Shown here in pieces: positions 14,534 to 55,199 of a stretch of DNA of 64,000 bases. The translations under genes were made by a program, and so were the position numbers. The stretch's first letter is position 1, and each line of letters opens with the position of its first letter. This DNA is from an uncultured Eubacteriales bacterium (GTDB lineage: Bacteria > Bacillota > Clostridia > Christensenellales > Aristaeellaceae). The notes below the pieces were generated by a model. That model was not told where the DNA came from and made no database searches. It saw only the letters and a program-made list of their open reading frames with translations. Location of the stretch: positions 62,001 through 126,000 of the forward strand of contig CACWZP010000008.1 of NCBI GenBank assembly GCA_902765395.1. The letters run 5' to 3'.

Positions 14534-14563
14534 GAGGGACTCCTTTCGTCGCGCCTGTTTGGC

Positions 14564-16360: not shown

Positions 16361-17103
16361 TGCTCTTGCCCTTTCATCCATTCCCGGTAGGCGTCGCAGA
16401 CCTCCCTGGCGGGGCCGTCAGCCATCAGGTGGCCATGGTCCAGCCAGATGGCGCGCTTGCAGAGCCGCTTGACCAGCTTCGTGTCGTGGGAGACGAACAG
16501 CAGCGTCTTGCCCTCTTTCAGCATGCGGCTCATGCGCTGGTTGCACTTGCGCTGGAAGTTGTAGTCGCCCACGGCCAGCACCTCGTCCACGACGAGTATG
16601 TCCGCCTGCACGTGCGTGGCGATGGAGAAACCCAGGCGGGCGATCATGCCGGAGGAATAGCTGCGCACCGGCACGTCGATGAACTGCTCCAGCTCTGCGT
16701 AGGAGACTATCTCGTCGTAGTTTTCCTGCATATAGCGGTGCTTGTGGCCCAGCAGCGCACCGTTCAAATACACGTTTTCCCGGCCCGTCAGGTCCGGGTC
16801 AAAGCCGGCGCCCAGCTCGATCAGCGGTGCGATGCTGCCGTTGACCCGGACGCTGCCTTCGGTGGCGTCCATGACCCCGGCGATGATCTTCAGCATGGTG
16901 CTCTTGCCGCTGCCGTTCTGGCCGATCAGGGCCACGGATTCGCCGCGCTGGATGTTAAAGCTGACGTTGTCCAGCGCAGTGAAGCGGGAGAAGCGCAGCT
17001 TACGCCGGACCAGCTTGACCATGTATTCCTTGAGCGTGTTCGTGCGCTCCTGCTCCATGATGAAGTGCATGGAGACGTTGTTGGCCTCAATCATGTTGCT
17101 CAT
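16357..17103 (-). CDS. Polysaccharide ABC exporter ATPase (Wzt/TagH type, no glycan-binding domain)
   Basis: The 248-residue ATPase has Walker A GQNGSGKST (about residue 63), the exporter-typical IELGAGFDPDLTGRENVYLNG block, signature VRSYSSGMIARLGFS and Walker B ILVVDEVLAVGD, followed by a switch His in FVSHD. It ends soon after the NBD, so it lacks the C-terminal glycan-binding domain of the second ATPase in this window. It pairs with the permease 18 bp upstream and overlaps the first GlfT2-like gene by 4 bp. Together they should move a lipid-linked glycan across the membrane. Confidence 0.93.
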   Translation of the reverse strand: MSNMIEANNVSMHFIMEQERTNTLKEYMVKLVRRKLRFSRFTALDNVSFNIQRGESVALIGQNGSGKSTMLKIIAGVMDATEGSVRVNGSIAPLIELGAGFDPDLTGRENVYLNGALLGHKHRYMQENYDEIVSYAELEQFIDVPVRSYSSGMIARLGFSIATHVQADILVVDEVLAVGDYNFQRKCNQRMSRMLKEGKTLLFVSHDTKLVKRLCKRAIWLDHGHLMADGPAREVCDAYREWMKGQEQ

Positions 17104-17121
17104 AATCCACTCTCCGGCCCG

Positions 17122-17916
17122 TCAGATGTAGTAGATGAAGTCCTTGCGCATGTGGTCGAACAGCAGTGAGCCGAGGACGAACATCGCCAGCGACGCGCCT
17201 GCCGCGTAAAGCCAGTTCGGCGCAGGGGGAATGCGCCCGTACAGCATTAGCTCGCGGAAAAGGTAGATGATGCTGTACAGGGGGTTCAGCCGGATGAAGC
17301 GGGCCACGCTTTCGGGTACGGCTTCGATGGGATAGAAGATCGGCGTGGCGTACATCAGGACCATCGTGAGCACGCCGTACAGGTGCGTCACGTCCTGGAA
17401 CTTCACCGCCAGGCCCGAGAGGATCATGCCTACGCCGCTGGCAAAGAACAGCAGGAAAACCAGGGGTACAAAGAACAGGAGCATTGAAAGGTGAAACTGC
17501 ACGCGGGTGAAGATCATCACGATCAACACCGCCAGCAGGCTCAGCGCCATCGTCGTAAAGCACGAAAGTACCCGTGCCAGCGGGAACACGCACTTGGGCA
17601 CGTAGACCTTTTTTAAAAGCGGCGCGTTTTCCAGGATAGCGTACATCGCCTTGTTCGTGGACTCGTTGAAGAAGTTGAACACGGTCTGGCCGCAGATCAG
17701 GTACAGCGGGTAGTTTTCAATGTTGAATCGGAACATGTAGCTGAACACGACCATCATCACCGACATCATCATCAGCGGGTTCAGCAAGCTCCAGAAATAG
17801 CCCAGGAAGCTGCGCCGGTATTTGAGCTTCAAATCGCGCTTCACCAACTCACCGATCAAGTGAGCGTACCGAACCGTCATCTTGACTTCATGTATGATAC
17901 CCAATGCATTCTCCAC
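17122..17916 (-). CDS. Polysaccharide ABC exporter permease (Wzm/TagG type)
   Basis: This 264-residue ABC-2 type permease has about six membrane segments and the family N-terminus LVKRDLKLKYRRSFLGYFWSLLNPL, an amphipathic coupling helix before the first membrane span. LRNPLYSIIYLFRELML-type features follow (here IRLNPLYSIIYLFRE). It is the first gene of the minus-strand unit and has its own promoter. It forms the transport channel with the ATPase downstream. Confidence 0.93.
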   Translation of the reverse strand: MENALGIIHEVKMTVRYAHLIGELVKRDLKLKYRRSFLGYFWSLLNPLMMMSVMMVVFSYMFRFNIENYPLYLICGQTVFNFFNESTNKAMYAILENAPLLKKVYVPKCVFPLARVLSCFTTMALSLLAVLIVMIFTRVQFHLSMLLFFVPLVFLLFFASGVGMILSGLAVKFQDVTHLYGVLTMVLMYATPIFYPIEAVPESVARFIRLNPLYSIIYLFRELMLYGRIPPAPNWLYAAGASLAMFVLGSLLFDHMRKDFIYYI

Positions 17917-24437: not shown

Positions 24438-25508
24438 ATGAAGAAGACCGCATTGATCATGGCCGGCGGTCGGGGCGAGCGCTTCTGGCCCCAGAGCCGC
24501 ATGGACATGCCCAAGCAGTTCCTGTCGCTGACGGGCGACGGCAAGACAATGATCCAGTTGACGGTGGAGCGCATCCGCACACTGGTGGAGCTGGAGGACA
24601 TCTTCATCGCCACCAATGAGAATTACCGCGAGCTGGTGAAGGCCCAGCTGCCGGGGCTGCCGGAGGAGAACATCCTCTGCGAGCCCATCGGCCGCAACAC
24701 CGCGCCGTGCATCGGTTTGGGTGCAGAACACATATTCCGCCGCTGCGGCGACGCGCTGATGCTGGTGCTGCCCAGCGACCACCTCATCAAGTACAATTCC
24801 ATCTTCTGCCAGGCGCTGGAGGATGCCTGTGCCGTGGCGGAGCGGGGCGAGAACCTGGTCACGCTGGGCATCACGCCCAACAACCCGGACACCGGCTACG
24901 GCTACATCAAGTTCGACCCCTCCCAGACCCTGGATCGGGCCTTCAGGGTGGAGCGCTTCGTGGAAAAGCCGGACCTGGAGACTGCCAAGAGCTACCTTGC
25001 CTCCCACGAATACCTGTGGAACAGTGGCATGTTCATCTGGAGGACTTCCACGATCCTGGCCAACCTGAAGCGCTACCTGCCCGACATGTACGAGGGCCTG
25101 GAGCGCATCGGCGAGGCCATCGGCACGCCGGAGCAGGAGCCGGTGCTGGAGCGGGAGTTCCGCGCCTTCAAGTCCGTCTCCATCGACTATGGCGTGATGG
25201 AGAAGGCGGAGAACATCTACTGCCTGGCCGGCAACTTCGGCTGGGATGACGTGGGCTCCTGGCTGGCGGTGAGCCGCATCCGCAAGACCAACGAGTTCGG
25301 CAACGTGGTCAACGGCAACGTGGTGACCATCGACACCAAGCGCTCGATCATCCAGGGTGGCGACAAGCTGATCGCCACCGTGGGCCTGCGGGACATCATC
25401 ATCGTGGATACCGACGACGCTATCCTCATCTGCGATAAGGACAGCGCCGGCGACATCAAGAAGGTGCTGGAGAACCTGCGCATCTGCAACAAGTACCAAT
25501 ACCTGTAA
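24438..25508 (+). CDS. manC: Mannose-1-phosphate guanylyltransferase
   Basis: This 356-residue enzyme forms GDP-mannose from mannose-1-phosphate and GTP. Signatures are MAGGRGERFWPQSR (pyrophosphorylase loop), EPIGRNTAP, LPSDHLIKYN, FVEKPD and SIDYGVMEKA. It lacks the C-terminal phosphomannose isomerase domain found in the longer bifunctional enzymes (about 470 residues). It is the first step of the GDP-D-rhamnose branch with the next two genes. GGGGAAGAGG precedes the ATG. Confidence 0.95.
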   Translation: MKKTALIMAGGRGERFWPQSRMDMPKQFLSLTGDGKTMIQLTVERIRTLVELEDIFIATNENYRELVKAQLPGLPEENILCEPIGRNTAPCIGLGAEHIFRRCGDALMLVLPSDHLIKYNSIFCQALEDACAVAERGENLVTLGITPNNPDTGYGYIKFDPSQTLDRAFRVERFVEKPDLETAKSYLASHEYLWNSGMFIWRTSTILANLKRYLPDMYEGLERIGEAIGTPEQEPVLEREFRAFKSVSIDYGVMEKAENIYCLAGNFGWDDVGSWLAVSRIRKTNEFGNVVNGNVVTIDTKRSIIQGGDKLIATVGLRDIIIVDTDDAILICDKDSAGDIKKVLENLRICNKYQYL

Positions 25509-25541: not shown

Positions 25542-26579
25542 ATGAAGAAGGCATTGATCACCGGCATCACTGGACAAGACGGCTCCTATCTGGCCGAGCT
25601 GCTGCTTGAGAAGGGCTACGAGGTACACGGCATCGTACGCCGCGCCTCCGTCTCCACCACCCGGCGCATTGACCACATCCTGGACAAGCTGGTCATCCAC
25701 GAGGGCGACCTGTCCGACTCCTCCAGCATCATCCGCATCGTGCTGCAGGTGAAGCCGGACGAGATCTACAACCTGGCGGCCCAGAGCCACGTGGGCGTCA
25801 GCTTTGAGGCCGCGGAGTACACCGGCGACGTGGACGCGCTGGGTGTGCTGCGCATCCTGGAGGCCGTGCACACCGCCGGCCTGGACAAGACCTGCCGCGT
25901 GTACCAGGCGTCCACCTCCGAGTTGTACGGCAAGGTTGAGGAATGCCCCCAGAGCGAGACAACCCCCTTCCATCCCTACAGTCCCTACGCCGTCGCGAAG
26001 CAGTACGGCTTCTGGATGATCAAGGAGTACCGCGAGGCCTACGGCATCTTCGCATGCAACGGCATCCTGTTTAACCACGAGTCCGAGCGCCGTGGTGACA
26101 ACTTCGTCACCCGCAAGATCACCCTGGCTGCCGGCCGCATCGCCTGCGGGCTCCAGGACCACTTGGAGCTGGGCAACTTGGATTCCCTGCGCGACTGGGG
26201 CTACGCCAAGGACTACGTCGAGTGCATGTGGCTGATTCTGCAGCAGGATGAGCCGGACGACTACGTCATCGCTACCGGCGTGCAGCACACCGTGCGCGAG
26301 TTCACCACCCTGGCCTTTGCCCACGACGGCATCGAGATCGAGTGGAAGGGCTCTGGCCTGGACGAGAAGGGCTACGACAAGAAGACCGGCAAGATGGTGG
26401 TCTGCGTCAATCCCCAGTGGTTCCGCCCGACCGACGTGGTGAACCTGTGGGGCAACCCGACCAAGGCCCGCACCAAGCTGGGCTGGAACCCGCAGAAGAC
26501 CAGCTATGAGCAGCTGTGCGCCATCATGGCCGAGCATGACCTGCAGCTGGCCCGCCGCGAGGCGAGGGACAAGGCATGA
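25542..26579 (+). CDS. gmd: GDP-mannose 4,6-dehydratase
   Basis: This 345-residue short-chain dehydratase converts GDP-D-mannose to GDP-4-keto-6-deoxy-D-mannose. It has the NADP loop [32 protein letters not shown], the Ser-Thr active site in QASTSELYG and the catalytic [21 protein letters not shown] is a Gmd hallmark. It lies 33 bp after manC and overlaps the next gene by 4 bp (ATGA). Confidence 0.97.
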
Positions 26580-27496
26580 AAGCACTGATTACCGGCAGCC
26601 TCGGGTTTGTCGGCAACTATCTGAGAAGAGAGCTGGAGGCGCATGGGTATGAGGTCGTCGGGCTGGACATCCGGCCCGGTGAGGCCACCCTGCAGGTGGA
26701 CCTGATGGACGCGACCCAGATCGCGGAAGTCGTCGTCCGGGAGAAGCCAGACGCCATCTTCCACCTTGCTGCCCAGGCGGACGTGGGCCGCTCCTGGAAG
26801 GCGCCGCAGCTGACCGTACAGCTGAATATCGTGGCCACCCTCAACCTGATGGAGGCCGTTCGCCAGCTGGATCCCCACGGGATCCGGATGGTCATCGTGG
26901 GCTCCTCCGACCAGTACGGCAGCCTTGGAGCCGCCGGCGCTCGGGTCAGCGAGGACATGGATATGAAGCCGCAGACTCCTTACGCCATCTCCAAGCGGGC
27001 CCAGGAAGAGTTGGCAAAGCTCTATGCCCGCAGTTACGACATGAACATCTGCCTGACCCGCTCCTTCAACCACGGCGGCGCCGGCCAGCGCACGGGCTTC
27101 ATGATCCCGGACTTCGCCTCCGGCATCGTGATGGTTGAGCGGGGCCAGGCGACGGAGCTGAAGGTGGGTAACCTGTCCTCCCGGCGGGACTTCACCCACG
27201 TGGAGGACGTGGTGCGCGCGTACCGGCTGATCGCCGAGAAGGGCGTGCCGGGTGAGGTATATAACGTGGGCTCCGGCGTGACCTACAGCGCCCAGGAGGT
27301 GCTGGACATGCTGCGCGGCCTGGCCCGGTGCGAGGTGCCCGTGGTCCAGGATCCAGCCCGGATGCGCCCCAGTGACACGCCGGTGATCTGCTGTGACCAC
27401 TCCAAGCTGACCCGGGACACTGGCTGGGAGCCGGCACTGGGCATGGAGCGGATCGTGGGGGATACCCTTGAATATTACAGGAGCTTGGGAGCATGA
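26576..27496 (+). CDS. rmd: GDP-6-deoxy-D-lyxo-4-hexulose reductase (GDP-D-rhamnose synthase)
   Basis: This 306-residue short-chain dehydrogenase has [22 protein letters not shown], the YAISK catalytic pair and [20 protein letters not shown]. This pattern and the late [17 protein letters not shown] segment resemble Rmd, which reduces the Gmd product to GDP-D-rhamnose. A GDP-fucose synthase would carry epimerase features not seen here. The 4-bp overlaps with gmd and with the permease gene tie D-rhamnose supply to the second exporter. Confidence 0.88.
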
Positions 27497-28269
27497 TTGA
27501 ACAGATCAAAGAGATATATTGCTACCGGGAAATGATTTGGATGCTGGTGCGGCGTGACCTGCGTGGCCGCTATAAGGCGTCCGCCTTGGGCTTTTTGTGG
27601 ACCTTCCTCAACCCACTGCTGCAGCTGGGAGTGTACACTATCGTGTTCTCGATCATCATGCGCGCGGGCATCGAAAAGTACTACCTGTTCCTGTTCGTGG
27701 CACTGATTCCATGGATGTTCTTCGCCACGTCGATCCAGGGCGGCGCGACCTGCATCCTGACGCAAAAGGACATGGTCGCCAAGATCCATTTTCCTAGACA
27801 GGTGCTGCCCATCGCCCATGTGACCGCCAGCTTCGTGAATATGTTGTTGTGCTTCATTGTGGTGTTGCTCGTCTGCGCCTTCGGACTCGGGCTGGAACTG
27901 GTGCTGCTGCCGTTACTGATCCCCGTGATGCTGACGGAATATCTGCTGGCGCTGGGACTGTGTTTTGTCGTAGCCGGCGTCACCGTGTATTTCCGCGATC
28001 TTGAGCACATCACCGGCATCTTCGTAATGTTGTGGCAGTTCCTCACTCCGGTCATGTACTCGGTGGAACAAGTGCCGGAGCAGTTGAGGGATGTGTTCAT
28101 GCTCAACCCGATGACCCCGGTCATTAGCTGCTACCGCGACATTTTGTACTATCGGCAGGCGCCACAGATGAATAACCTGGTACTGTCCATAGGCTTTGGA
28201 TTGCTTTTCCTGGTTATTGGATGGTTCCTGTTCGACCATTTGCAGAAACATTTTGCGGAGGAACTCTGA
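27493..28269 (+). CDS. wzm: Polysaccharide ABC exporter permease (Wzm type), second system
   Basis: This 258-residue ABC-2 permease has about six membrane segments and the family N-terminus MIWMLVRRDLRGRYKASALGFLWTFLNPLLQLG; the C-terminal part shows LNPMTPVISCYRDILYY. It overlaps rmd by 4 bp and the ATPase by 1 bp, so the three should be made together. It differs clearly from the permease at 17122. It should export the D-rhamnose-containing glycan. Confidence 0.94.
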   Translation: MIEQIKEIYCYREMIWMLVRRDLRGRYKASALGFLWTFLNPLLQLGVYTIVFSIIMRAGIEKYYLFLFVALIPWMFFATSIQGGATCILTQKDMVAKIHFPRQVLPIAHVTASFVNMLLCFIVVLLVCAFGLGLELVLLPLLIPVMLTEYLLALGLCFVVAGVTVYFRDLEHITGIFVMLWQFLTPVMYSVEQVPEQLRDVFMLNPMTPVISCYRDILYYRQAPQMNNLVLSIGFGLLFLVIGWFLFDHLQKHFAEEL

Positions 28270-29585
28270 TGAGCGAATTTATACCGGTACGCGAAAAGAA
28301 GGATGACGGTGTTGCGATCCGCGTGGAAAACATCACCAAGCGATTCAAGGTTTATTTGGACAAGGGCGTCTACCTGAAGGAGCGAGTGCTGTTCAAGAAC
28401 CGCAACCGCTATGAGGAGCGCAATGTGCTGCGCGGAATCAGTTTCGAAGTGAAGAAAGGTGAGGCCATCGGCCTGATTGGCGAAAACGGTTGCGGCAAAA
28501 GCACGACGCTGAAGTTGCTCTCCCGCATTATGTATCCCGATTCAGGAAAAATCGAGATTAACGGACGCGTCTCGGCGTTGATTGAACTGGGCGCAGGCTT
28601 CCACCCGGACATGAGCGGCCGCGAAAATATCTATACCAACGCTGCTATCTTTGGTTTGAGTAAGGGCGAGATCGACCGGCGTTTACAGACGATCATCGAC
28701 TTTTCAGAGTTGGGCGATTACATCGACAATCCTGTGCGCACCTATTCCTCGGGCATGTACATGCGTTTGGCTTTCTCGGTGGCCATCAATGTGGACGCGG
28801 ATGTGCTGTTGATTGACGAGATACTTGCCGTGGGCGACATGGCCTTTCAGGCCAAGTGTTTTAACAAGCTGAGGGAGATCAAGAACAGAGGTACGACGAT
28901 CGTGATCGTGTCCCACTCCCTGGCCCAGATTGAACAGATCTGTGAGCGTAGCTACTGGATCAGCGAGGGCAAGATTCGCGAACAGGGCGCGCCAAGGGAC
29001 GTGCATCCGCTGTACATGGATTATATGTCCCACAAGGGGCAGGGCATCGACGGAGGCGCGAAAACTGACGTGTCGGCGGAAACCCTGGCTCCGGCATCGG
29101 CTGAAGCGATGGAGCAGCCCGCGCCTGAGACGCCAGTTGAACCGGTCCAGCCGGAGGCCAAGAAACGCTGGGGCAGCGGCGAGGCTACAATGCAGAGCGT
29201 GCAGGTGCTGGACAGGGACGGAAATGAGAGGACCAACTTCGCTCCGAACGAGCCCATTACTGTGCGAATCGCCTACACTGCCCAACGGATGCTACCGGAT
29301 TCGGTGGTGGGTATCGCTATTTATAAATCCGACCAAACGTTTATGTACGGTACCAATTCGTTGATAGACACGTCGCAGCCTGTCAAGCTGCAGCGCCAGG
29401 GAACCATCGATTTGGTGATCGACAGCCTCCCGGTCGCTAATGGCTGCTACACTATCGACCTGGCGCTGCATCGACCGGACGGCTTCAACTTCGATTTCTG
29501 GCGGGAGATTTGCACGATCAACATCGCAGGCAAGGTCAACCCGCCGGGGTTGATCTATCTGCCTCACCTCTGGGAATTCCACTGA
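28269..29585 (+). CDS. wzt: Polysaccharide ABC exporter ATPase with C-terminal glycan-binding domain (Wzt type)
   Basis: The 438-residue protein starts at the ATG overlapping the permease stop (TGATG). The NBD (1-245) has GENGCGKST, IELGAGFHPDMSGRENIY, RTYSSGMYMRLAFS and VLLIDEILAVGD. An Ala/Pro/Glu-rich linker (about 258-292) leads to a beta-sandwich domain (about 294-438) starting RWGSGEATMQSVQVLDRDG. That is the Wzt C-terminal domain pattern, which in E. coli O8/O9a systems binds the capped end of the polymer. The next gene encodes a candidate cap enzyme. The sequence thus predicts an export system that checks chain termination. Confidence 0.93.
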   Translation: MSEFIPVREKKDDGVAIRVENITKRFKVYLDKGVYLKERVLFKNRNRYEERNVLRGISFEVKKGEAIGLIGENGCGKSTTLKLLSRIMYPDSGKIEINGRVSALIELGAGFHPDMSGRENIYTNAAIFGLSKGEIDRRLQTIIDFSELGDYIDNPVRTYSSGMYMRLAFSVAINVDADVLLIDEILAVGDMAFQAKCFNKLREIKNRGTTIVIVSHSLAQIEQICERSYWISEGKIREQGAPRDVHPLYMDYMSHKGQGIDGGAKTDVSAETLAPASAEAMEQPAPETPVEPVQPEAKKRWGSGEATMQSVQVLDRDGNERTNFAPNEPITVRIAYTAQRMLPDSVVGIAIYKSDQTFMYGTNSLIDTSQPVKLQRQGTIDLVIDSLPVANGCYTIDLALHRPDGFNFDFWREICTINIAGKVNPPGLIYLPHLWEFH

Positions 29586-29634: not shown

Positions 29635-31029
29635 ATGAGCCGTCTAACTAAGATCCCTGTGCTTGGGCGCCTGCTGCGAGTTGCGAGTTCCGTATTCAGG
29701 GGGCCGGAGCGCTTTGACGCGCTGTTTGCCGAGAACGACCTGCTCAAACGGAAACTGGAGCAGGAGCAGGCGCGGTCGCAGCAGTGGGAGCAGACCCTCA
29801 CCATCCACGGAGCAGAGCTTCAGCGACAGATGCAGGCAATAGAATTGGAGCGGACACGCGTGCGGGTGCACAGCCGTCTGCTGGAGGCTATGGAAGCCAG
29901 AATGCGGGGGTGGATGGGTAGTGCAGAGGAGCATGTGTTGCGTACGGACCGCCGCTTGGATTCGGCCGAGGAGCGAATGCGGCACACCGACAAGCGGCTG
30001 GATTCGGCCGAGGATTCGGCCGAGGAGCGAATGCTACACACGGATCGCCGCTTGGATTCGGCCGAGGAGCGAATGCGGCACACCGACAAGCGGCTGGATT
30101 CGGCCGAGGGACGCATGGCCCAACACGATATACAGTTTAAGATGATATTCGACGGTGAGCCGAGCTTCATGAACGTTGTGTTGACGCGGCTGTATACGGA
30201 TCACGAGGTGCTGGAAACGCTCAACCGTCAGCTGAGCAGCCATCCTACCGTCTGGGGCGACCCTGCACGGCTGCACATCGCAGATTCTGCTGCAGTGTAT
30301 ACCTGCCTGTTCAATACCAATTCCGGCACTATTACTGTGGGCGAGTATACCTTTGCTGGCTCGCGGGTCAGCCTGCTGGCAGGTAGCCATGACCAGCATT
30401 TGAAAGGCTTTTTGCGCCGGGATGCCGAAATCACAGAGGGTTGCGATATCGTCGTCGGCAACGGCGTTTGGCTAGCCTCGAACTGCGTACTGCTGGGTCC
30501 CTGTGAGGTGGGAGATAACGCTGTCATCGCTGCTGGTGCGGTAGTGACACCGGGAACGAGGGTCCCTGCTAATGCCATCTATGGCGGCGTGCCGGCCCGA
30601 AAGATTGGGGAGTTGGAGTTCGAAACACCACAGGATGCCGACAACCCGTTCGTTATAAAGGCGCTGGAGCGTGCACACGGTCTGCTGTTCATTGAAGGCT
30701 GGACGGAGAAGCAGCTGTTTCCCGACACCGACAAGGTCGGACACTGGCTTTGTGATAAGACGGGTAGCATACTATTAGAGCGCGGCGGGATGAGGCTGCG
30801 CTGTCGGCTGAACGGTGCCGAGGCAGCGGAGCTGCTGGTCGTTGGACCGGAGGGAGAATGCCGCATCACCCTGCGACAGGGAGAGGAAACGGCGCTGGAG
30901 CTTTGCATGGGGAGCGAGACCCCAGAATACGTGACTTTCCGCTTGGAGAACGGTGCCGGTCACTTGTTTGTGATGTGCGCGACGGATTCGGATAAAGGTA
31001 TAATGAATGGAGGAAGCCGGAATGAGTAA
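29635..31029 (+). CDS. Coiled-coil / left-handed beta-helix acyltransferase with internal 14-residue repeats
   Basis: This 464-residue three-part protein begins with a long coiled coil (about 25-165). The coil holds four 14-residue units: RRLDSAEERMRHTD at 106 and 138, KRLDSAE variants at 120 and 152, one with an extra DSAE. A left-handed beta-helix acyltransferase follows (about 212-322), with SGTITVGEYTFAGSRVSLLAGSH, then GVWLASNCVLLGPCEVGDNAVIAAGAVVTPG and the VPANAIYGGVPARKIG end. It probably O-acetylates sugar. The last 130 residues are beta-rich and may bind glycan. It sits just after the Wzt with a glycan-binding domain. By analogy with WbdD, whose coiled coil sets O-antigen length, I infer a chain-terminating, length-setting role. 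Confidence 0.8.
   Translation: MSRLTKIPVLGRLLRVASSVFRGPERFDALFAENDLLKRKLEQEQARSQQWEQTLTIHGAELQRQMQAIELERTRVRVHSRLLEAMEARMRGWMGSAEEHVLRTDRRLDSAEERMRHTDKRLDSAEDSAEERMLHTDRRLDSAEERMRHTDKRLDSAEGRMAQHDIQFKMIFDGEPSFMNVVLTRLYTDHEVLETLNRQLSSHPTVWGDPARLHIADSAAVYTCLFNTNSGTITVGEYTFAGSRVSLLAGSHDQHLKGFLRRDAEITEGCDIVVGNGVWLASNCVLLGPCEVGDNAVIAAGAVVTPGTRVPANAIYGGVPARKIGELEFETPQDADNPFVIKALERAHGLLFIEGWTEKQLFPDTDKVGHWLCDKTGSILLERGGMRLRCRLNGAEAAELLVVGPEGECRITLRQGEETALELCMGSETPEYVTFRLENGAGHLFVMCATDSDKGIMNGGSRNE
29950..30109 (+). repeat. In-frame tandem repeat inside the coiled-coil acyltransferase gene
   Basis: Two identical 64-bp copies lie at 29950-30013 and 30046-30109 (96-bp period, 32 residues). Within the first period a 12-bp unit GATTCGGCCGAG is tandemly duplicated (30001-30012 and 30013-30024). 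All units are multiples of three, so gain or loss keeps the frame and changes coil length. Confidence 0.92.
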
Positions 31030-31462
31030 TCCCATGGAAGTGAGCGTGGACGTCAGCAAGATCATGGCGGACATCAAGCGGGAGATCAAGGAAAAGGGTC
31101 TGTACGACGAGCTGCCTGCCTTTGAGCAGGTGACGATCCTGAACAACCAGGAGATCAATGCACTGGACGCTACGGGCCTGCGCAATAGGATCCAGGGCGC
31201 CAAGGCCAACACGGCGGTACCTGCGGATTATCCCGTCGAAGGCAACGCCCTCAAGCGGCTATTCAAGAAGGCTTCCCAGAAGTTCACCCGCTGCACAATC
31301 GGCCCCATGTCCATCCGCCTGACGGACAATCACGCCGCCATCCTCGACTGTTTGGAGTATGCATGCAACGTCATCGAGCAGCAGCAGGCCCAGATCGCCG
31401 AGCAGAACCAGAAGATCGCGAAGATCTATGCAGCGCTTGATCGGGGAGAGGATGCGGAATGA
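31022..31462 (+). CDS. Small protein with C-terminal coiled coil
   Basis: I do not recognise the family. The 146-residue protein starts at the ATG with GGAGGAAG upstream, overlapping the end of the acyltransferase gene by 8 bp. The N-terminal part (VDVSKIMADIKREIKEKGLYDEL) and middle are charged and helical. The segment around SQKFTRCTIGPMSIRLTDNHAAI is conserved-looking, and the end (NVIEQQQAQIAEQNQKIAKIYAAL) is a short coiled coil. The overlap and the shared coiled-coil character suggest that it partners the acyltransferase. Confidence 0.75.
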   Translation: MSNPMEVSVDVSKIMADIKREIKEKGLYDELPAFEQVTILNNQEINALDATGLRNRIQGAKANTAVPADYPVEGNALKRLFKKASQKFTRCTIGPMSIRLTDNHAAILDCLEYACNVIEQQQAQIAEQNQKIAKIYAALDRGEDAE

Positions 31463-32514
31463 GGATTGTTCAGGTTCTACCGACTTTGAGCCGGGGAGAC
31501 GCAGTGGGAAACAACTGCCGCGCGATCGACGGTATCCTGCGGGAAGAGGGTTGCGACACCCAGATATACGCCGGCATCATTGACCAGGGCGTGCCAGACG
31601 GTGTCGCGAAGCTCTTTTCCGAAATGGGTAGGCTGGAGAAAGACGACATCCTACTCTATCATTTGGCAATCGCCTTCGATCACGATATGCGCAATGTGGG
31701 TGGCCACACCATCTTTCAGTACCACAACGTAACGCCACCACACTTTTTTGATCGATACAGTCCGTTTATTGCCAACGCTTGCCGGTCCGGACTGGAAGAG
31801 GTAAGGTCCTACCGGGACGCTCCAGAGATGTGCTGGGCGGATTCAGATTTCAATAAAAACGACCTAATCGAGATGGGCTACACCTGTCCGATTCACACGA
31901 TCCCGATCCTGGTGCCCTTTGAGGATTATGAGAAGCCGGCCGACCTGGAGGTCATCAAACGGTATGATGACGACTATGTTAACTTCATTTTCGTGGGTCG
32001 AGTGGTGCCAAACAAGGCGCATGAAGATGTCATCCGGACCTTTGCATGGTACCAGAAGCACATCAACCGCAGGTGTCGACTGTTTTTGGTAGGTAATGCC
32101 AGCCTCGAAAGCTATGTAAACCACCTCAAGCGCTACATCAAGACACTCGGGGTGAAGAATGTGATCTTTCCCGGCCACATCAGTTTCAACGCAATCCTCG
32201 CATTCTATCGGGTCGCAGACATTTTCCTGTGCATGAGCCAGCACGAGGGATTCTGCGTACCGCTGTTGGAAGCGATGTACTTCCACATCCCCATCATTGC
32301 TAGAGATACAACGGCGATTCCCTATACCCTGGGCGGTGCAGGCGCGCTGGTTGAGGACAACGATCCGATCAAGGCTGCTCTGATGGCCGACCGGATCGTT
32401 AATGACAAGGCGCTGCGCGATGCGATCGTGGCTGGACAGGACAGAAGACTGGCTGATTTCGCACACGACAAGATCAAGGAGCAGATTCTGCGGGAGCTTC
32501 GCGCGTTCATATAA
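31459..32514 (+). CDS. GT4-type glycosyltransferase, 'GDAVGNN' paralogue A
   Basis: This 351-residue GT-B enzyme begins MRIVQVLPTLSRGDAVGNNCRAIDGIL and overlaps the upstream gene by 4 bp (ATGA). It has FQYHNVTPPHFFDRY, IFVGRVVPNKAHEDVIRTF and the donor-site motif CMSQHEGFCVPLLEAM. Its sequence is very similar to the next gene over its full length, with the same length of 351. They look like a recent tandem duplication with some divergence of acceptor residues. Family and context point to a mannosyl- or D-rhamnosyltransferase; this is inferred. Confidence 0.92.
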   Translation: MRIVQVLPTLSRGDAVGNNCRAIDGILREEGCDTQIYAGIIDQGVPDGVAKLFSEMGRLEKDDILLYHLAIAFDHDMRNVGGHTIFQYHNVTPPHFFDRYSPFIANACRSGLEEVRSYRDAPEMCWADSDFNKNDLIEMGYTCPIHTIPILVPFEDYEKPADLEVIKRYDDDYVNFIFVGRVVPNKAHEDVIRTFAWYQKHINRRCRLFLVGNASLESYVNHLKRYIKTLGVKNVIFPGHISFNAILAFYRVADIFLCMSQHEGFCVPLLEAMYFHIPIIARDTTAIPYTLGGAGALVEDNDPIKAALMADRIVNDKALRDAIVAGQDRRLADFAHDKIKEQILRELRAFI

Positions 32515-32581: not shown

Positions 32582-33637
32582 ATGCGGATCGCACAACTGG
32601 TGCCAACGCTATTGATGGGCGACGCGGTGGGTAACAATTGCCTCGCTATCGATCGTATCCTACGAGAAGCCGGGTACGATGCTTCGCTGTACGCGGAGAA
32701 CATCGATGCACGCTTGCCTGAAGGCGCTGCCGCCCATCTGTCCACTATGGGTAGGTTGGGGGACAACGACATACTGCTGTATCAGCAGGTGACGACCTTT
32801 GACCATGACATTAGGAGCTTCGGAGGCCAGCGAGTCTTCCAGTACCACAATGTGACACCACCGACCTTCTACTCCGATTACGATCGGAAGGTGGCCGAAT
32901 CCTGTGCTAAGTCTCTCGAACAGATGCGCACCTTGCGGGACCTGCCAGGCCTGTGCTGGGTGGATTCAGATTTCAACCGACGGGATCTGATAGACGCAGG
33001 CTATGCATGTAGCATCCACACGATCCCCATCCTGGTGCCCTTTTCGGACTACGACCAGCCCGCAGATGCGCAGATCATGGAGCGGTATGATGACGACTAC
33101 GTCAACTTCATTTTTGTGGGCCGAGTGGTGCCGAACAAAGCCCATGAGGACGTCATCCGTACCTTCGCATGGTACCAGAGGAATATCAATGCCAAATGTC
33201 GCCTGTTCCTAGTGGGCAACGCTGATTTCCAGCCCTATGTGGGCCGGCTCATGCGTTATATCCGCAAGCTGGGGGTCGAGAACGTGATTTTTCCCGGACA
33301 CATAAGCTTCAGCGCGGTGCTGGCCTACTACCGCGTTGCAGATATCTTTTTGTGTATGAGTAGACACGAGGGCTTCTGCGTGCCGCTACTGGAGGCGATG
33401 CACTTCCATATCCCGGTGTTGGCGTTGGCTGCCACGGCCGTGCCCTCCACGCTGGGCGGGGCGGGTGTGCTGCTGGAGGACAACAATCCCATCGCCGCCG
33501 CCCTGATAGTGGACCGCGTCGTCAGGGACGAGACTCTGCGCAAGCGGATTGTCGCTGGACAGGACGAGCGGCTCGAGTACTTCTCTATGGAAAACATTAA
33601 GCGGATGATCTTGGACGACATCCGTATGCTTTCCTGA
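32582..33637 (+). CDS. GT4-type glycosyltransferase, 'GDAVGNN' paralogue B
   Basis: This 351-residue paralogue of the preceding gene begins MRIAQLVPTLLMGDAVGNNCLAIDRIL and shares FQYHNVTPPTFYSDY, the whole NFIFVGRVVPNKAHEDVIRTF block and CMSRHEGFCVPLLEAM. The start is the ATG 9 bp after CAAGGAG; the open frame upstream is not similar to the paralogue and is not used. Two such enzymes could add alternating linkages to a D-rhamnan or mannan backbone. Confidence 0.92.
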   Translation: MRIAQLVPTLLMGDAVGNNCLAIDRILREAGYDASLYAENIDARLPEGAAAHLSTMGRLGDNDILLYQQVTTFDHDIRSFGGQRVFQYHNVTPPTFYSDYDRKVAESCAKSLEQMRTLRDLPGLCWVDSDFNRRDLIDAGYACSIHTIPILVPFSDYDQPADAQIMERYDDDYVNFIFVGRVVPNKAHEDVIRTFAWYQRNINAKCRLFLVGNADFQPYVGRLMRYIRKLGVENVIFPGHISFSAVLAYYRVADIFLCMSRHEGFCVPLLEAMHFHIPVLALAATAVPSTLGGAGVLLEDNNPIAAALIVDRVVRDETLRKRIVAGQDERLEYFSMENIKRMILDDIRMLS

Positions 33638-33652
33638 CGGGGGGTGAACGCA

Positions 33653-34837
33653 GTGAGTGACAATCGGAAAAAGATACTGTTCGTCAGCCCGCGCTACGGG
33701 CTGGAAGTAAACGGAGGTGCGGAGATGGAGTGCCGTGCCTATGCTGAACATCTGCTGCCTTATTTCGACGTATCGGTGCTTACGACCTGCTCCAGGGACC
33801 ACATGACCTGGGACAACAGCTATCCTGAGGGCAGGACCGATATCAACGGTGTAGATGTAATTCGTGTCCGGAACGAGAGTAGCCGGGTGATGGATGATTT
33901 CGGCGCGGGCATCGTGCGGGCCACCAATCCGCGGCATAACCGGGAGGACGAACTGTTTTTCATCGAAAAGCAGGGCCCCTATTGTCCGGCACTGATCGAA
34001 TACCTGCAGGAACACGGCCGGGAATACGAAGCCGTGTTGTTCATGACATATCTGTACTATCCCATCATACATGGTATTGCGGTGAAGGGTATGAACTCGA
34101 TCCTAATCCCCACGGTGCATGATGAGTGGGTAGCACATTTGGAGATCATTCAGAATGTCTTTGAGAAGGCTAAGGGCTACATCTACAACACCGACGAGGA
34201 GCGGGTTTTCGCCGAGAAGCAGTATCCCTCTGCGGTAGGCAAGCCTTCCTGTACGGTGGGCTATGGCATCAATGTACCCGAGCCGGAGACCTTACCGGAT
34301 GTAAAGGCCAAGTATGGCATTGATGACTATGTGCTTTATGCTGGTCGCGTGGACGAGGCTAAGGGCTGCGGTTACCTGTTTACCTATTTCCAGCAGTTTA
34401 AAAAGCACCATCCCAGCGATTTGAAGCTGGTGCTCTGCGGAAAGCCAGGCATGGAGATTCCTAAGGACAGGGACATCCTGTCCCTGGGCTTTGTCAGCGA
34501 GGACGACAAATACGCGCTGATGAGGGACGCGAAGGTGTTGGCACTAGCCTCGGAGTTCGAGAGCCTGTCTATCGTGGTGCTCGAGGCAATGATGAGCGGA
34601 ACGCCGGTACTGGTGAACGGCCAGTCTGAGGTGTTGCGCGGCCACTGCCACAAGAGCAACGCTGGGCTGTATTTCTCCAATTACACCCAGTTTGAGCGCA
34701 CACTGACCTGGCTTCTGACCCATCCAGCGGAATACGCTCAGATGCAGGAAAATGGCAAGGCCTACGTGCTGGAGCACTATCAGTGGCCCCATATCGTGGA
34801 GCAGATGAGTAAGCTGATCGAAAAGGTCACCGATTGA
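33653..34837 (+). CDS. Family 4 glycosyltransferase
   Basis: This 394-residue GT-B enzyme has an acceptor domain starting KKILFVSPRYGLEVNGGAEMECRAYAEHL. The donor domain shows VLYAGRVDEAKGCGYLF and the E-x7-E motif in SEFESLSIVVLEAM. A GTG at 33653 with GGGGGTG upstream is the likely start; another GTG three codons earlier is possible. It ends just before the AT-rich gene, where base composition changes sharply. Confidence 0.9.
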   Translation: MSDNRKKILFVSPRYGLEVNGGAEMECRAYAEHLLPYFDVSVLTTCSRDHMTWDNSYPEGRTDINGVDVIRVRNESSRVMDDFGAGIVRATNPRHNREDELFFIEKQGPYCPALIEYLQEHGREYEAVLFMTYLYYPIIHGIAVKGMNSILIPTVHDEWVAHLEIIQNVFEKAKGYIYNTDEERVFAEKQYPSAVGKPSCTVGYGINVPEPETLPDVKAKYGIDDYVLYAGRVDEAKGCGYLFTYFQQFKKHHPSDLKLVLCGKPGMEIPKDRDILSLGFVSEDDKYALMRDAKVLALASEFESLSIVVLEAMMSGTPVLVNGQSEVLRGHCHKSNAGLYFSNYTQFERTLTWLLTHPAEYAQMQENGKAYVLEHYQWPHIVEQMSKLIEKVTD

Positions 34838-34854
34838 ATAGAGAGGTATGTATG

Positions 34855-37050
34855 ATGAGTGATCAGATTAAGGACAATACATCATGTTTGAAAAAGGAAT
34901 GGCTACATCTATTGATTGCCGTTATAGTTTTTCTTATTAATATTCTATACCTCAACAGAATGTATGGCTACTTCGTGTTGGATGATGAGTTGGGATATTG
35001 GAGCCATGCTGCTAATATGGCAGGTTATGATTGGTCTGGAATAACGGGTAAAATGCAGTGGTATTCTTATGGTTATAGTATCGTTTTGTTTTTGATTATA
35101 CAGTTAAATAGACTATTTGGCGGGAATTTCATAATTGCATATCGCCTTGCAATTGCTGTCAATGCGTTATTCTGTAGCTCTATATACATTATGTGCTATC
35201 ACGTAGCGAAAAAAGTAACAAAACACGATTGTTTATCTGTTATTAGTGCAATAGTTTCTACGTTATCTTGTGTTTTACTATTCCACTCACGAATTGCATG
35301 GACCGAATGCTATATTGCTTTGATAACTACTGCTATAGCTGCAATCACAATATGGGATATTAATAGGAATAAGATTTGGCTTAATATCTTACTTGGTTTT
35401 CTTGTTGGATATATATATATTGTTCACAATCGGAATCTTGGTATAGTTATAGCATATTTAGTTTATGCTTTATTAATGTCGGTAAATAAAAATAAACGTG
35501 CAATTACGACTGTATCTCTTTTGTTTCCGCTGTTAATTCTTCTAATTGATGGACATATTAGCAATGTTCTCAAGATAAAAATGTGGGGTACGACATCGAA
35601 TCCTATTGATACAAACAATGCTTCTAACAGATTATTACTCTTGGCGAATGTTTTTTCTGTTCAAGGTATAATGGCAGCGATTAGAACAGCTATAGGGCAA
35701 TTATGGTATTTAGGCACATCTAGTTTTGGCTTGTTTTATCTTGGTATCTTTTACATGTTTACAAAGATAAAGTATTACTTTAAAATGGGAGAAGTAAATG
35801 CTGCTTTATCTTGTAGTTTTGTTTTGGTAGCTTTTGTATTTACATTAGGTATTTCAGTTTCTTCATTCTTTCAATTCTATATTCCTGATAGTATTGTCAA
35901 TCGTGCGGATATATATTTCTACGGAAGATATATTGAAGCCTGGTTACCTCTCTTTACTACACTAGGATGTCTCCAATTATATAGTTTATGGGACAATAAG
36001 AAGTATGCATTTAAACTTCTTATTACTATTTGTTTCTTCCATTTTATAGCTTCTATTTCTATCTGTTCTGTCCCGAACATAAATAATATGGTGGCAAATT
36101 GGATTTGCGTAAGCGGAGTAGCTGCATTATCAAACATTCTCACTTCGAAACTTTCTTATGTGGCGCTAATACTTTTGTTCTATACTTTTTTATTTGTATT
36201 ATCATTATGTTCTTGGTGTGCACATAATAGTGAAAAGCATAAGGCGGTGTTCTATGCTCCTTTGGTATGTCTTATTGCCTTGTCGATAGTCTCCTCAACA
36301 AAGCTTGTCGATATATATATCAATAACTATCAGAACGATATTGCTCAGTTGGTGTTAGGAACGGATCAAGTTGAGGATCAAAACATAGGAGACAATAAAA
36401 CTTTAGTTGGTATAGTAAATAATAATGTGCCAACAGATAAGATAAGTGTCACAGTAAAACGGATACAGTTTTTAAATCCTTCTATGAAGTGTATACTTGC
36501 AAGCGCCGATGCCATTAAACAATATACGCAGAACGGCGTTGAGTATATATTATTAAATTTTGATGATAGAGTAAACTATTCTGAAGAATTTGAAAAGTCG
36601 TATCAAGAAGAGTTTGCAGACTCCTTAGATTATATAGTGTGCAAATATGTAACTAATGATATAGGCAGGGGTATAAAAATACCTATTTCCAAGTTTAAAG
36701 TAATGAACGGTACAATTGAAAGTGATGCTATCTATTCAAATGATAACAGCAGTTTTACAATGTACGGGCCATATATAACATTGCTAGCAGGAACATATAA
36801 CCTTATAATAGAGGGGGAACTTATTGATAGTGTTTATACGGATGATTGCTTTGTTGATGTAACAACGAACATGGGACATAAGCAAATAATTAAGTGTGAT
36901 CATCTAGAGAAATATGTAGATGGGAATAATTATCATATTGAATGTAGTTTTACATTAGATGCTGTATCAGAGAATTGCGAATTCAGAATGTTTACTACTG
37001 ACATGGTAAAAGTCAGAATTCATTGTGTGAGCATTGATACAGTAGATTAG
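34855..37050 (+). CDS. AT-rich GT-C-like membrane glycosyltransferase with extracytoplasmic domain
   Basis: The 731-residue protein has about a dozen membrane segments (residues 15-470). An acidic first loop, YFVLDDELGYW, is placed like the catalytic Asp of lipid-linked-sugar (GT-C) transferases. The last 230 residues are soluble; near residue 635 a beta domain opens with MYGPYITLLAGTYNLIIEGEL, a motif that recurs at 45111 and 50763. The ATG at 34855 lies 8 bp after GAGAGG. The gene is strongly AT-rich with many AT-ending codons between GC-rich neighbours, so it was probably acquired by transfer. It likely moves sugar from a polyprenyl-phosphate donor outside the cell. Confidence 0.75.
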   Translation: MSDQIKDNTSCLKKEWLHLLIAVIVFLINILYLNRMYGYFVLDDELGYWSHAANMAGYDWSGITGKMQWYSYGYSIVLFLIIQLNRLFGGNFIIAYRLAIAVNALFCSSIYIMCYHVAKKVTKHDCLSVISAIVSTLSCVLLFHSRIAWTECYIALITTAIAAITIWDINRNKIWLNILLGFLVGYIYIVHNRNLGIVIAYLVYALLMSVNKNKRAITTVSLLFPLLILLIDGHISNVLKIKMWGTTSNPIDTNNASNRLLLLANVFSVQGIMAAIRTAIGQLWYLGTSSFGLFYLGIFYMFTKIKYYFKMGEVNAALSCSFVLVAFVFTLGISVSSFFQFYIPDSIVNRADIYFYGRYIEAWLPLFTTLGCLQLYSLWDNKKYAFKLLITICFFHFIASISICSVPNINNMVANWICVSGVAALSNILTSKLSYVALILLFYTFLFVLSLCSWCAHNSEKHKAVFYAPLVCLIALSIVSSTKLVDIYINNYQNDIAQLVLGTDQVEDQNIGDNKTLVGIVNNNVPTDKISVTVKRIQFLNPSMKCILASADAIKQYTQNGVEYILLNFDDRVNYSEEFEKSYQEEFADSLDYIVCKYVTNDIGRGIKIPISKFKVMNGTIESDAIYSNDNSSFTMYGPYITLLAGTYNLIIEGELIDSVYTDDCFVDVTTNMGHKQIIKCDHLEKYVDGNNYHIECSFTLDAVSENCEFRMFTTDMVKVRIHCVSIDTVD

Positions 37051-41656: not shown

Positions 41657-42502
41657 ATGAAGACTGAATTGTTGCACATACGGCGGGTGGGGTTGGTTTG
41701 CCTGCTGATCTGTGTGATTGTGCTTGGCTTTTTTTCAGAAATGAAAGCGCTGACTGCGGCGGAAGAAGCCAAGCACCCGCTGGCGGGCAAGGTCGTCTTC
41801 CTGGCGGGGGACAGCCGCAGCTCGACGGATTACACCTTTTACGGGGAACAGCTGGAGCAAAAGGCGGGCGTGACGGCGCTGGTGGAGGGCGCGAGCGGCC
41901 GGACCGCGGCGTACAACGCGTCCGACGCCTATTTTGAGCGCCTGGCGGCGTCGCCCCACGACTTCTCGATCTGGCTGGTGGGCGGCAATGACGACGGCAG
42001 CCCCGGCACGGTGGGCACCTTCGACGCCGATTCCGAGCTGGCCTGCGGGGGCGAGCCGGTGGTGGCGCCGACCGATGTATCCCGGGATTACGACGGGGAA
42101 TGCTTTATACAGGCTGTGGATCACATCATGCGCAAGTACATGGCGGAATTCGGCGCTATGGAGGGGCCCGGCGGCCTGCCGCCGGTGATGATCTTCTGCA
42201 CCGACCTGCCCCAGCAGCGGGAGGGGCCGGACACGCCCTGGAGCCAGCGGGAGAACTGGGAGCGCAAGCGCCTGGCGATCCTGGAGTGCTGCGCGCGCAA
42301 CGGCATGACCTGCGTGGACCTGTACGCGCTGTGCGGCTTCGACATGTCCGTGGAGCCCTGGTTCGTGCCGCCCACGGACAAGGTCAATGACCGCGGCGTC
42401 TACTATATGGACGGCCTGCACCCCAATGCCCGGGGCATGGACGTGATTACAGACCTGGAGATCCAGGAGATGATGAATTGCTCTGGCGACGGGGGCATTT
42501 AG
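41657..42502 (+). CDS. Membrane-anchored or secreted SGNH hydrolase
   Basis: The 281-residue protein has one N-terminal membrane/signal segment (about 11-30) followed by an SGNH hydrolase. Block I is FLAGDSRSS with the catalytic Ser, a Gly-containing GASGRTAAYN fits block II, GGND is block III and DGLHPNARG holds the catalytic Asp-x-x-His. It probably deacylates the exported glycan outside the cell, opposite to the acyltransferase upstream. Confidence 0.87.
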   Translation: MKTELLHIRRVGLVCLLICVIVLGFFSEMKALTAAEEAKHPLAGKVVFLAGDSRSSTDYTFYGEQLEQKAGVTALVEGASGRTAAYNASDAYFERLAASPHDFSIWLVGGNDDGSPGTVGTFDADSELACGGEPVVAPTDVSRDYDGECFIQAVDHIMRKYMAEFGAMEGPGGLPPVMIFCTDLPQQREGPDTPWSQRENWERKRLAILECCARNGMTCVDLYALCGFDMSVEPWFVPPTDKVNDRGVYYMDGLHPNARGMDVITDLEIQEMMNCSGDGGI

Positions 42503-55165: not shown

Positions 55166-55199
55166 AAGAACATGATACAGCGACATTTTGGAGGAAGCC

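What the first reader, a model, noticed from the sequence alone, without database searches (positions are those of the whole stretch)
29635..31029. Candidate 'molecular ruler' acyltransferase: coiled coil with in-frame repeats fused to a beta-helix acyltransferase, next to a Wzt with a glycan-binding domain
Seen: a coiled coil with four 14-residue units, then a left-handed beta-helix acyltransferase, then a beta-rich tail, directly after Wzm/Wzt with a C-terminal glycan-binding domain. Known: in E. coli O9a, WbdD caps the chain, its coiled coil length sets polymer length, and Wzt recognises the cap. Inference: this enzyme is an unrelated solution to the same task, using an acyl cap instead of a methyl or phosphate cap.
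Basis: partly seen in the sequence, partly recalled or inferred. Interest (0 to 1): 0.82.

Follow-up and report, generated by a model that had tools for sequence, protein, structure and literature searches.

The report
Acyl cap enzyme with coil ruler
A relative of rumen Clostridia appears to finish and measure its surface sugar chains with a rod-mounted acyl-adding enzyme where its kin use a rod-mounted methyl-adding enzyme, and the exporter part that reads the chain end seems to have been exchanged along with it.

Summary
Gene 29635-31029 encodes an amphipathic N-terminus, one long predicted helix with five 14-residue units, a left-handed beta-helix acyltransferase and a beta-sandwich, between wzt and glycosyltransferase genes of a GDP-D-rhamnose/ABC-export cluster.

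Ten of 308 family genomes, the own one included, have a full-type homologue. The Wzt cap-binding domain was found in 15 of 308: the window, eight other acyltransferase genomes (48-65% identical to it) and six without the acyltransferase (22-44%). Of those six, four clusters hold a coil protein with a methyltransferase domain, one a coil ORF cut by a contig end, one neither. The window's Wzt looks mosaic: its ATPase part groups with methyl-type transporters (98/99); grouping its cap-binding part with them is rejected (p-AU 0.008); the switch lies at the domain junction.

Best reading: a terminator that works like WbdD but caps with an acyl group. Acylation, termination and length control are inferred, not shown. 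Against: G046 has no detected cap-binding Wzt; G031 has a methyltransferase ORF beside the acyltransferase. Main rival: a NeuO-like side-chain acetylase.

The parts
24438..25508 (+). ManC-like mannose-1-phosphate guanylyltransferase (GDP-mannose supply)
   Evidence: TIGR01479 1e-102, below its curated cut-off; a ManC match in all 9 other family acyltransferase loci
25542..26579 (+). GDP-mannose 4,6-dehydratase GMD
   Evidence: TIGR01472 over cut-off
26576..27496 (+). RMD-like reductase, probably giving GDP-D-rhamnose
   Evidence: best solved match 2pk3 GDP-6-deoxy-D-lyxo-4-hexulose reductase 1.3e-65; no NCBIfam model over its cut-off
27493..28269 (+). Wzm, ABC-2 permease
   Evidence: PF01061 6.6e-17
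28269..29585 (+). Wzt, ATPase plus C-terminal cap-binding domain (ORF opens at 28221; likely start 28269)
   Evidence: PF00005 and PF14524; closest solved relative A. aeolicus Wzt
28311..29030 (+). Wzt nucleotide-binding part, of methyl-type ancestry
   Evidence: groups with G003, G011, G047, G056, support 98/99
29130..29582 (+). Wzt cap-binding domain, acyl-type
   Evidence: 48-65% identity to 8 other acyltransferase genomes, 22-44% to 6 without
29635..31029 (+). coil-acyltransferase gene (464 aa)
29659..29718 (+). N-terminal amphipathic segment (residues 9-28), putative membrane anchor
   Evidence: highest hydrophobic moment of the protein; helix 9-20 predicted at low confidence
29704..30150 (+). 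long helix / coiled coil, residues 24-172
   Evidence: confident for 31-150; periodicity
29920..30141 (+). five 14-residue units with one 4-residue insert at 30004-30015
30247..30612 (+). left-handed beta-helix acyltransferase domain (residues 205-326); H252 at 30388-30390, W279 at 30469-30471
   Evidence: H252 and W279 invariant in 20 of 20 aligned sequences
30676..30978 (+). C-terminal beta-sandwich (residues 348-448), weakly like carbohydrate-binding modules
31022..31462 (+). p146: small protein with a VDV..IM motif, an amphipathic helix and (by eye) a short C-terminal coil; fused to the acyltransferase C-terminus in two relatives
   Evidence: overlaps both neighbouring genes
31459..32514 (+). 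GT4-type glycosyltransferase
   Evidence: PF00534 6.3e-24
32582..33637 (+). GT4-type glycosyltransferase
   Evidence: PF00534 7.9e-24
33644..34837 (+). GT4-type glycosyltransferase
   Evidence: PF00534 1.9e-18

Best explanation
The gene makes a chain-terminating acyltransferase for an ABC-exported D-rhamnose polysaccharide. Three chains associate; the N-terminal amphipathic segment holds one end at the membrane where the glycosyltransferases work, and the coil holds the beta-helix active sites up to about 22 nm away (149 predicted helical residues x 0.149 nm). A growing chain reaches the active site only when long enough; the enzyme then puts an acyl group (probably acetyl, from acetyl-CoA) on its non-reducing end, which stops growth and marks the chain for the matching Wzt cap-binding domain. 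Supported by computation: domain order, helix, conserved catalytic residues, synteny, methyltransferase coil proteins in the related clusters without it, and change of the Wzt cap-binding domain together with the enzyme. Inferred only: trimer, membrane binding, cap chemistry, termination, ruler action.
For: (1) Slot: the acyltransferase follows Wzt directly in 7 of 9 other family loci. Of six genomes with a related cap-binding domain but no full-type acyltransferase, four have in the cluster a coil protein with a methyltransferase domain (FkbM: directly after Wzt in G056 and G047, one gene further in G133; Methyltransf_23 behind DUF4214 and coil, several genes further, in G011); in G003 a DUF4214-coil ORF is cut by the contig end. 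(2) In 16 genomes searched whole, FkbM (E <= 1e-5) was found only in those three genes and in 0 of 10 acyltransferase genomes. (3) Cap reader: identity to the window 48-65% in the 8 other acyltransferase genomes, 22-44% in the 6 others, although Wzm of four of the latter is closer (79-80% against 48-66%). (4) Mosaic: the ATPase tree places the window with those four (98/99) and rejects one acyl clade (p-AU 0.0074); the cap-domain tree rejects window plus those four (p-AU 0.008); identity to G003/G011 falls from 88-98% to 18-47% at the domain junction. (5) DUF4214-coil front ends occur on a methyltransferase (G011) and on an acyltransferase (L049, RUG13559). (6) Spacer 43-172 residues; the near pair L038/L039 differs in length by one 7-residue indel there. 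(7) Catalytic His and Trp conserved.
Against: No chemistry is shown. G046 has the acyltransferase, but no cap-binding domain was found in its genome (87% complete) and no Wzm/Wzt in 29.9 kb around it; a Wzt-like ATPase match without the cap domain lies further along that contig. G031 has a Methyltransf_23 ORF directly after its acyltransferase. G067 has a 44% cap domain and no cap enzyme seen in 19 kb; RUG13559, which has the acyltransferase, is also only 44%, so the identity ranking blurs there. The all-acyl clade is not the best cap-domain tree (p-AU 0.085, not rejected), and that tree has long branches. The amphipathic segment is weak in L046 (rank 58 of 404), and in L039, L042 and L045 the best 18-mer overlaps the coil start and is not positively charged. 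Periodicity is not significant in 4 of 12 coils. Cap-pocket residues do not separate acyl-type from methyl-type domains. In NeuO the N-termini lie almost 65 A apart, which excluded a triple coil (PMC3046976, passages); the trimer here could not be modelled.
Confidence: 0.66

Rival explanations
1. NeuO-like tailoring enzyme: the beta-helix domain O-acetylates residues along the rhamnan, and the N-terminal repeats only raise affinity or processivity; the chain is not terminated by it. (The rivals here are not mutually exclusive.)
For: NeuO is a beta-helix O-acetyltransferase with 1-31 N-terminal heptads whose number raises catalytic efficiency linearly, and it needs chains of at least 14 residues (PMC3046976, passages). 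The C-terminal beta-sandwich, weakly like carbohydrate-binding modules, would suit a tailoring enzyme too.
Against: NeuO's repeats come from a heptanucleotide array and are disordered in the crystal; here the units are 14 residues in frame and a long helix is predicted. A tailoring enzyme gives no reason for the Wzt cap-binding domain to change with it, nor for coil-methyltransferases in the related clusters.
Confidence: 0.2
2. Scaffold: the coil protein mainly gathers glycosyltransferases at the membrane; acylation of a sugar or of the chain start is secondary, and length is set elsewhere, for example by p146 or the DUF4214 proteins.
For: p146 is fused to the acyltransferase in two relatives and has its own amphipathic helix; long p146-like coil ORFs stand alone in G003 and G011.
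Against: H252 and W279 are invariant in the ten aligned members, and in the family members the spacer lies between a conserved N-terminal segment and the enzyme.
Confidence: 0.1
3. The joint change of cap-binding domain and cap enzyme is a passenger effect: one stretch of DNA starting inside wzt was replaced by recombination, and its genes need not work together.
For: The switch point and the acyltransferase gene are contiguous in the window, so one event could move both.
Against: The association also holds in 8 other acyltransferase genomes and, with a 44% domain, in RUG13559, whose transporters are not of the window's mosaic type.
Confidence: 0.1

Closest known systems
WbdD of E. coli O8/O9a (K. 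pneumoniae O5/O3)
   Same: Coil between a membrane-proximal end and a distal cap enzyme; partner Wzt with cap-binding domain; WbdD is a trimer (PMC3482155 and PMC11231755, passages)
   Different: WbdD has its catalytic domains at the N-terminus and the anchor at the C-terminus; here the order is reversed and the enzyme is a beta-helix acyltransferase
WbbB (O12), ORF7-O4 and ORF6-O7 of K. pneumoniae
   Same: Coil proteins with other caps (Kdo, methylphosphate); ORF6-O7 has a predicted CBM-like domain (PMC11231755, passages)
   Different: No acyltransferase among them in the passages seen
Coil plus FkbM methyltransferase proteins of the same bacterial family (G056, G047, G133)
   Same: Same kind of cluster and place; coils with internal repeats
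   Different: Methyltransferase instead of acyltransferase; N-terminal region different (by eye)
NeuO and OatWY polysialate O-acetyltransferases
   Same: Left-handed beta-helix O-acetyltransferases acting on a polysaccharide; NeuO has variable N-terminal heptads (PMC3046976, passages)
   Different: NeuO is prophage-borne, phase-variable, transfers several acetyl groups per chain; its N-terminal repeats are disordered
Aquifex aeolicus WzmWzt
   Same: Closest solved relative of the cap-binding domain (2.9e-9); exports a rhamnose-mannose chain; residues that I read as matching its cap contacts Asn313 and His350 are invariant in the 9 acyl-type domains (contacts from PMC9445017, passages)
   Different: Its cap is a 3-O-methylated mannose or rhamnose; the same two residues are also kept in most methyl-type domains here, so they do not tell the cap
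WsaE of Geobacillus stearothermophilus S-layer glycan
   Same: Gram-positive rhamnan with Wzm/Wzt and a cap at the non-reducing end (PMC2943079, passages)
   Different: 2-O-methyl cap, L-rhamnose, methyltransferase fused to glycosyltransferases; its methylation did not depend on chain length in vitro

Membership tests
Coiled-coil chain terminators of ABC-exported glycans (WbdD type) | extended coiled coil in the same protein as the enzyme | tested here: met
   helix 24-172 predicted, confident for 31-150; heptad-type period p = 0.016
Coiled-coil chain terminators of ABC-exported glycans (WbdD type) | cap-adding catalytic domain of a known kind (methyl, methylphosphate, Kdo) | tested here: not met
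   Hexapep is the only Pfam family at E <= 0.01
Coiled-coil chain terminators of ABC-exported glycans (WbdD type) | gene beside Wzm/Wzt with a C-terminal cap-binding domain | tested here: met
   PF14524 9e-22; directly after Wzt in 7 of 9 other loci; not so in G031 and G046
Coiled-coil chain terminators of ABC-exported glycans (WbdD type) | membrane-associated amphipathic helix at the far end of the coil | tested here: inconclusive
   an N-terminal 18-mer has the top hydrophobic moment in 7 of 10 homologues and the second in 2, but in 3 of these it overlaps the coil; membrane binding not tested
Coiled-coil chain terminators of ABC-exported glycans (WbdD type) | cap stops growth and is needed for export; coil length sets chain length | not testable with these tools
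   needs glycan analysis
WbdD family proper (methyltransferase/kinase) | methyltransferase and, in O9a, kinase domain | tested here: not met
   no such Pfam domain in the protein
Left-handed beta-helix acyltransferases | hexapeptide repeats and beta-helix fold | tested here: met
   PF00132 1.3e-10, over cut-off; Foldseek
Left-handed beta-helix acyltransferases | catalytic histidine | tested here: met
   H252 aligns with the His of the GHP stretch of 1kqa, galactoside O-acetyltransferase (its catalytic role is recalled) and is invariant in 20 of 20
NeuO-type polysaccharide O-acetyltransferases | N-terminal heptads from a heptanucleotide array | tested here: not met
   14-residue units, 42-bp or 54-bp DNA period
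NeuO-type polysaccharide O-acetyltransferases | acetylates many residues along the chain | not testable with these tools
   needs glycan analysis

The most novel reading that the evidence does not exclude
A class of ABC-exported bacterial polysaccharides not yet described is ended by an acyl cap, measured by a coil-mounted beta-helix acyltransferase, and read by an acyl-specific Wzt cap-binding domain; cap enzyme and cap reader move as one cassette that can replace the methyl cassette on the same transporter.
Probability: 0.58. Interest if true: 0.8.

Novelty: new variant of a known kind. Interest (0 to 1): 0.72.

Why it matters
The caps named in the passages seen for coil-measured, ABC-exported O-antigens are methyl, methylphosphate, Kdo and, as unproven candidates, pyruvate (PMC10629545 and PMC11231755); S-layer glycans may also end in O-methyl groups, N-acetylmuramic acid or N-acetylglucosamine (PMC2943079). 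An acyl cap would add a chemistry that is easily removed, so an exported chain could be uncapped. The mosaic Wzt is a natural domain swap: the same transporter lineage with a methyl-type or an acyl-type reader, which makes cap specificity and the exchange of ruler enzymes directly testable. Comparable systems in Gram-positive bacteria were already noted (PMC3482155, passage), but no acyl terminator came up in the nine literature searches.

Tried and rejected
Considered and rejected: a lone tailoring enzyme with a chance neighbour (speak against it); wide occurrence (0 of 390 other genomes in a sample of the class at E 1e-25); a plasmid or phage origin (no place covering 80% of the query among 72,556 plasmid and 50,697 phage records); a methyl cap in the window's own cluster (no FkbM in the genome at E 1e-5; all 8 PF13489 matches of G000 lie on other contigs).

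Led nowhere: a profile search with the C-terminal domain (best E 0.17); its Foldseek hits are weak and mixed (TM 0.5 or less; cupins and insecticidal proteins as well as CBMs), so it is called only CBM-like. Cap-pocket residues compared with A. aeolicus Wzt did not separate acyl-type from methyl-type. A trimer model was not possible with single-chain prediction. The RhxxhE trimer motif (recalled, no call) occurs 16 times in 12 spacers against 0.76 in shuffles, but 7 of the 16 are in the window and L040, largely inside internal repeats. One search searched papers for a genus name that I had only guessed; it bears on nothing. One search found no paper. Of papers, passages of seven were seen (PMC11231755, PMC9445017, PMC3482155, PMC3046976, PMC10629545, PMC2943079, PMC12220298); the rest only as listings. 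Subscription papers are mostly missing from the library.

L050 starts at a contig end with no Wzm/Wzt in view.

Full report
What is there. From 24438 on, one strand reads ManC, GMD, RMD, Wzm, Wzt, the coil-acyltransferase, a 146-residue protein (p146) and three GT4-type glycosyltransferases. GMD plus an RMD-like reductase (closest solved protein 2pk3) predicts GDP-D-rhamnose, so the polymer is probably a D-rhamnan. Gene ends overlap from the acyltransferase through p146 to the next glycosyltransferase.

The protein. 464 residues: an amphipathic N-terminal segment, one predicted helix 24-172, confident for residues 31-150, five 14-residue units with one 4-residue insert, a left-handed beta-helix acyltransferase and a beta-sandwich. 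H252 lines up with the His of the GHP stretch of galactoside O-acetyltransferase (catalytic role recalled) and, with W279, is invariant in 20 of 20 aligned sequences; the NeuO paper names a His and a Trp as catalytically important (PMC3046976, passages). The C-terminal domain has only weak Foldseek matches, several of them carbohydrate-binding modules.

Homologues. Ten of 308 family genomes, the own one included, have a full-type homologue; within the genus it is 1 of 28. In a sample of 391 genomes of the class only the own genome matched at E 1e-25. A capped scan of genome contigs gave four named full-type loci, of which RUG13559 (L049) and RUG12797 (L050), both labelled Lachnospiraceae, appear new. 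All nine other family loci have a ManC match; eight have GMD and RMD; seven have the acyltransferase directly after Wzt. In L042 (G031) it lies 5.7 kb beyond Wzt, and L043 (G046) shows no Wzm/Wzt.

Variable spacer. Between anchor and enzyme the ten aligned homologues have 172, 70, 63, 134, 84, 43, 85, 52, 50 and 135 residues. Heptad-type periodicity reaches p < 0.05 in 8 of 12 coils. Clear internal repeats have mostly coil-like lengths: 14 in the window, 28 in L040, 32 in L046; in methyl-type proteins 21 (L146), 28 (L148) and 51 (L145); 11 in the stand-alone coil of L147; an offset of 13 in L050 (p = 0.017) is not coil-like, and L041, L039 and the L144 coil show none. L038 and L039, neighbours on the ATPase tree, differ in spacer length by one 7-residue indel.

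The slot test. The Wzt cap-binding domain was found in 15 of 308 genomes: nine with the acyltransferase and six without. In G056, G047 and G133 the cluster has a coil protein ending in an FkbM methyltransferase domain, directly after Wzt in the first two; in G011 a DUF4214-coil-Methyltransf_23 protein further downstream; in G003 a DUF4214-coil ORF cut by the contig end; in G067 nothing was seen in 19 kb. A search of these 16 genomes for FkbM found exactly those three genes and none in the ten acyltransferase genomes. DUF4214 plus coil also precedes the acyltransferase in L049, so the same kind of front end serves both chemistries.

Relative to the window, the Wzt ATPase part is 71-79% identical in nine acyl-type loci (eight family genomes and L049) and 64-82% in six others, but the cap-binding part is 44-65% against 22-44% (one-sided rank test p = 0.0004, rows not independent). 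For G003, G011, G047 and G056 Wzm is 79-80% identical to the window's, closer than any acyl-type Wzm (48-66%), while their cap domains are far (27-34%). Trees agree: on the ATPase part the window groups with these four (98/99) and an all-acyl clade is rejected (p-AU 0.0074); on the cap part, window plus these four is rejected (p-AU 0.008), and an all-acyl clade is not rejected (p-AU 0.085) though it is not the best tree, and long branches are flagged. Identity to G003 and G011 falls from 88-98% to 18-47% over residues 220-280, the domain junction. The simplest account is recombination that exchanged the cap-reading half of Wzt together with the downstream cap enzyme.

p146. It carries a VDV..IM motif, an amphipathic basic helix and, by eye, a short C-terminal coil. 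It is fused to the acyltransferase C-terminus in G061 and G036, and a truncated remnant (by eye) is fused in G060. With stand-alone copies in the window, L040, L042, L043, L044 and L046 (L040 and L046 recognised by the motif), 9 of 10 family acyltransferase loci have it or a remnant; none was found in L041. Longer p146-like coil ORFs stand alone in G003 and G011. A scaffold or polymerase-docking role is my guess.

How it probably works. As in the WbdD scheme, where a coil separates the membrane-side polymerase from the cap enzyme and only long chains are capped (PMC11231755, PMC3482155, PMC10629545, passages), with an acyl group as cap. Supported: architecture, conservation, slot, reader tracking. 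Inferred: trimer, membrane docking, acyl transfer to the chain end, arrest of growth, export coupling, length control. The acyl group is unknown.

Exceptions told. G046 has the acyltransferase but no detected cap-binding domain and no Wzm/Wzt in 29.9 kb around it; a Wzt-like ATPase match without the cap domain lies at C9:65260-66027; the genome is 87% complete. G031 has a Methyltransf_23 ORF directly after its acyltransferase (2695926-2696318). G067 is intermediate. L049's cap domain is only 44% identical. NeuO shows that a beta-helix trimer can splay its N-termini; whether this one does is untested.

Verdict. It is a new variant of a known kind: the scheme of coil-ruler terminators, with a cap chemistry not among those named in the passages read.

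Noticed in passing
window 28221-29585: The Wzt gene looks mosaic: ATPase part near methyl-type relatives, cap-binding part near acyl-type relatives.
   Followed up: yes
window 12707-17916 (- strand): A second Wzm/Wzt, apparently without a cap-binding domain (248 aa Wzt), beside two ~605-residue proteins that read like galactofuranosyltransferases (by eye; no NCBIfam match at 1e-30).
   Followed up: no
window 41657-42502; L038, L039, L043: GDSL/SGNH hydrolase (PF13472) with an apparent signal peptide (by eye); matches lie in 3 of 9 other acyltransferase loci, just after the acyltransferase in L043, and in 0 of 6 loci without it. It could remove an acyl cap after export.
   Followed up: partly
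L049 9218-10951: Acyltransferase with DUF4214 domains and a coil in front, in a cluster with ManC and Wzm/Wzt but no GMD/RMD match.
   Followed up: partly
L144 12592-15471; L147 12534-14390: Large DUF4214-coil proteins, in G011 ending in a methyltransferase domain: candidate cap enzymes of another design.
   Followed up: partly
L042 10049-10876: Methyltransf_23 ORF directly after the acyltransferase of G031: possible second modification of the same glycan.
   Followed up: partly
window 30000-30026: A 12-bp unit in tandem (2.2 copies) gives the 4-residue insert; it suggests that slippage changes coil length.
   Followed up: partly
window 34834-37050 and 48655-51024: Two large membrane proteins end in a similar stretch (YGPYITL..G.Y), seen by eye.
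   Followed up: no
window 55188-56963: Reads like a large serine recombinase (by eye), beyond the cluster.
   Followed up: no
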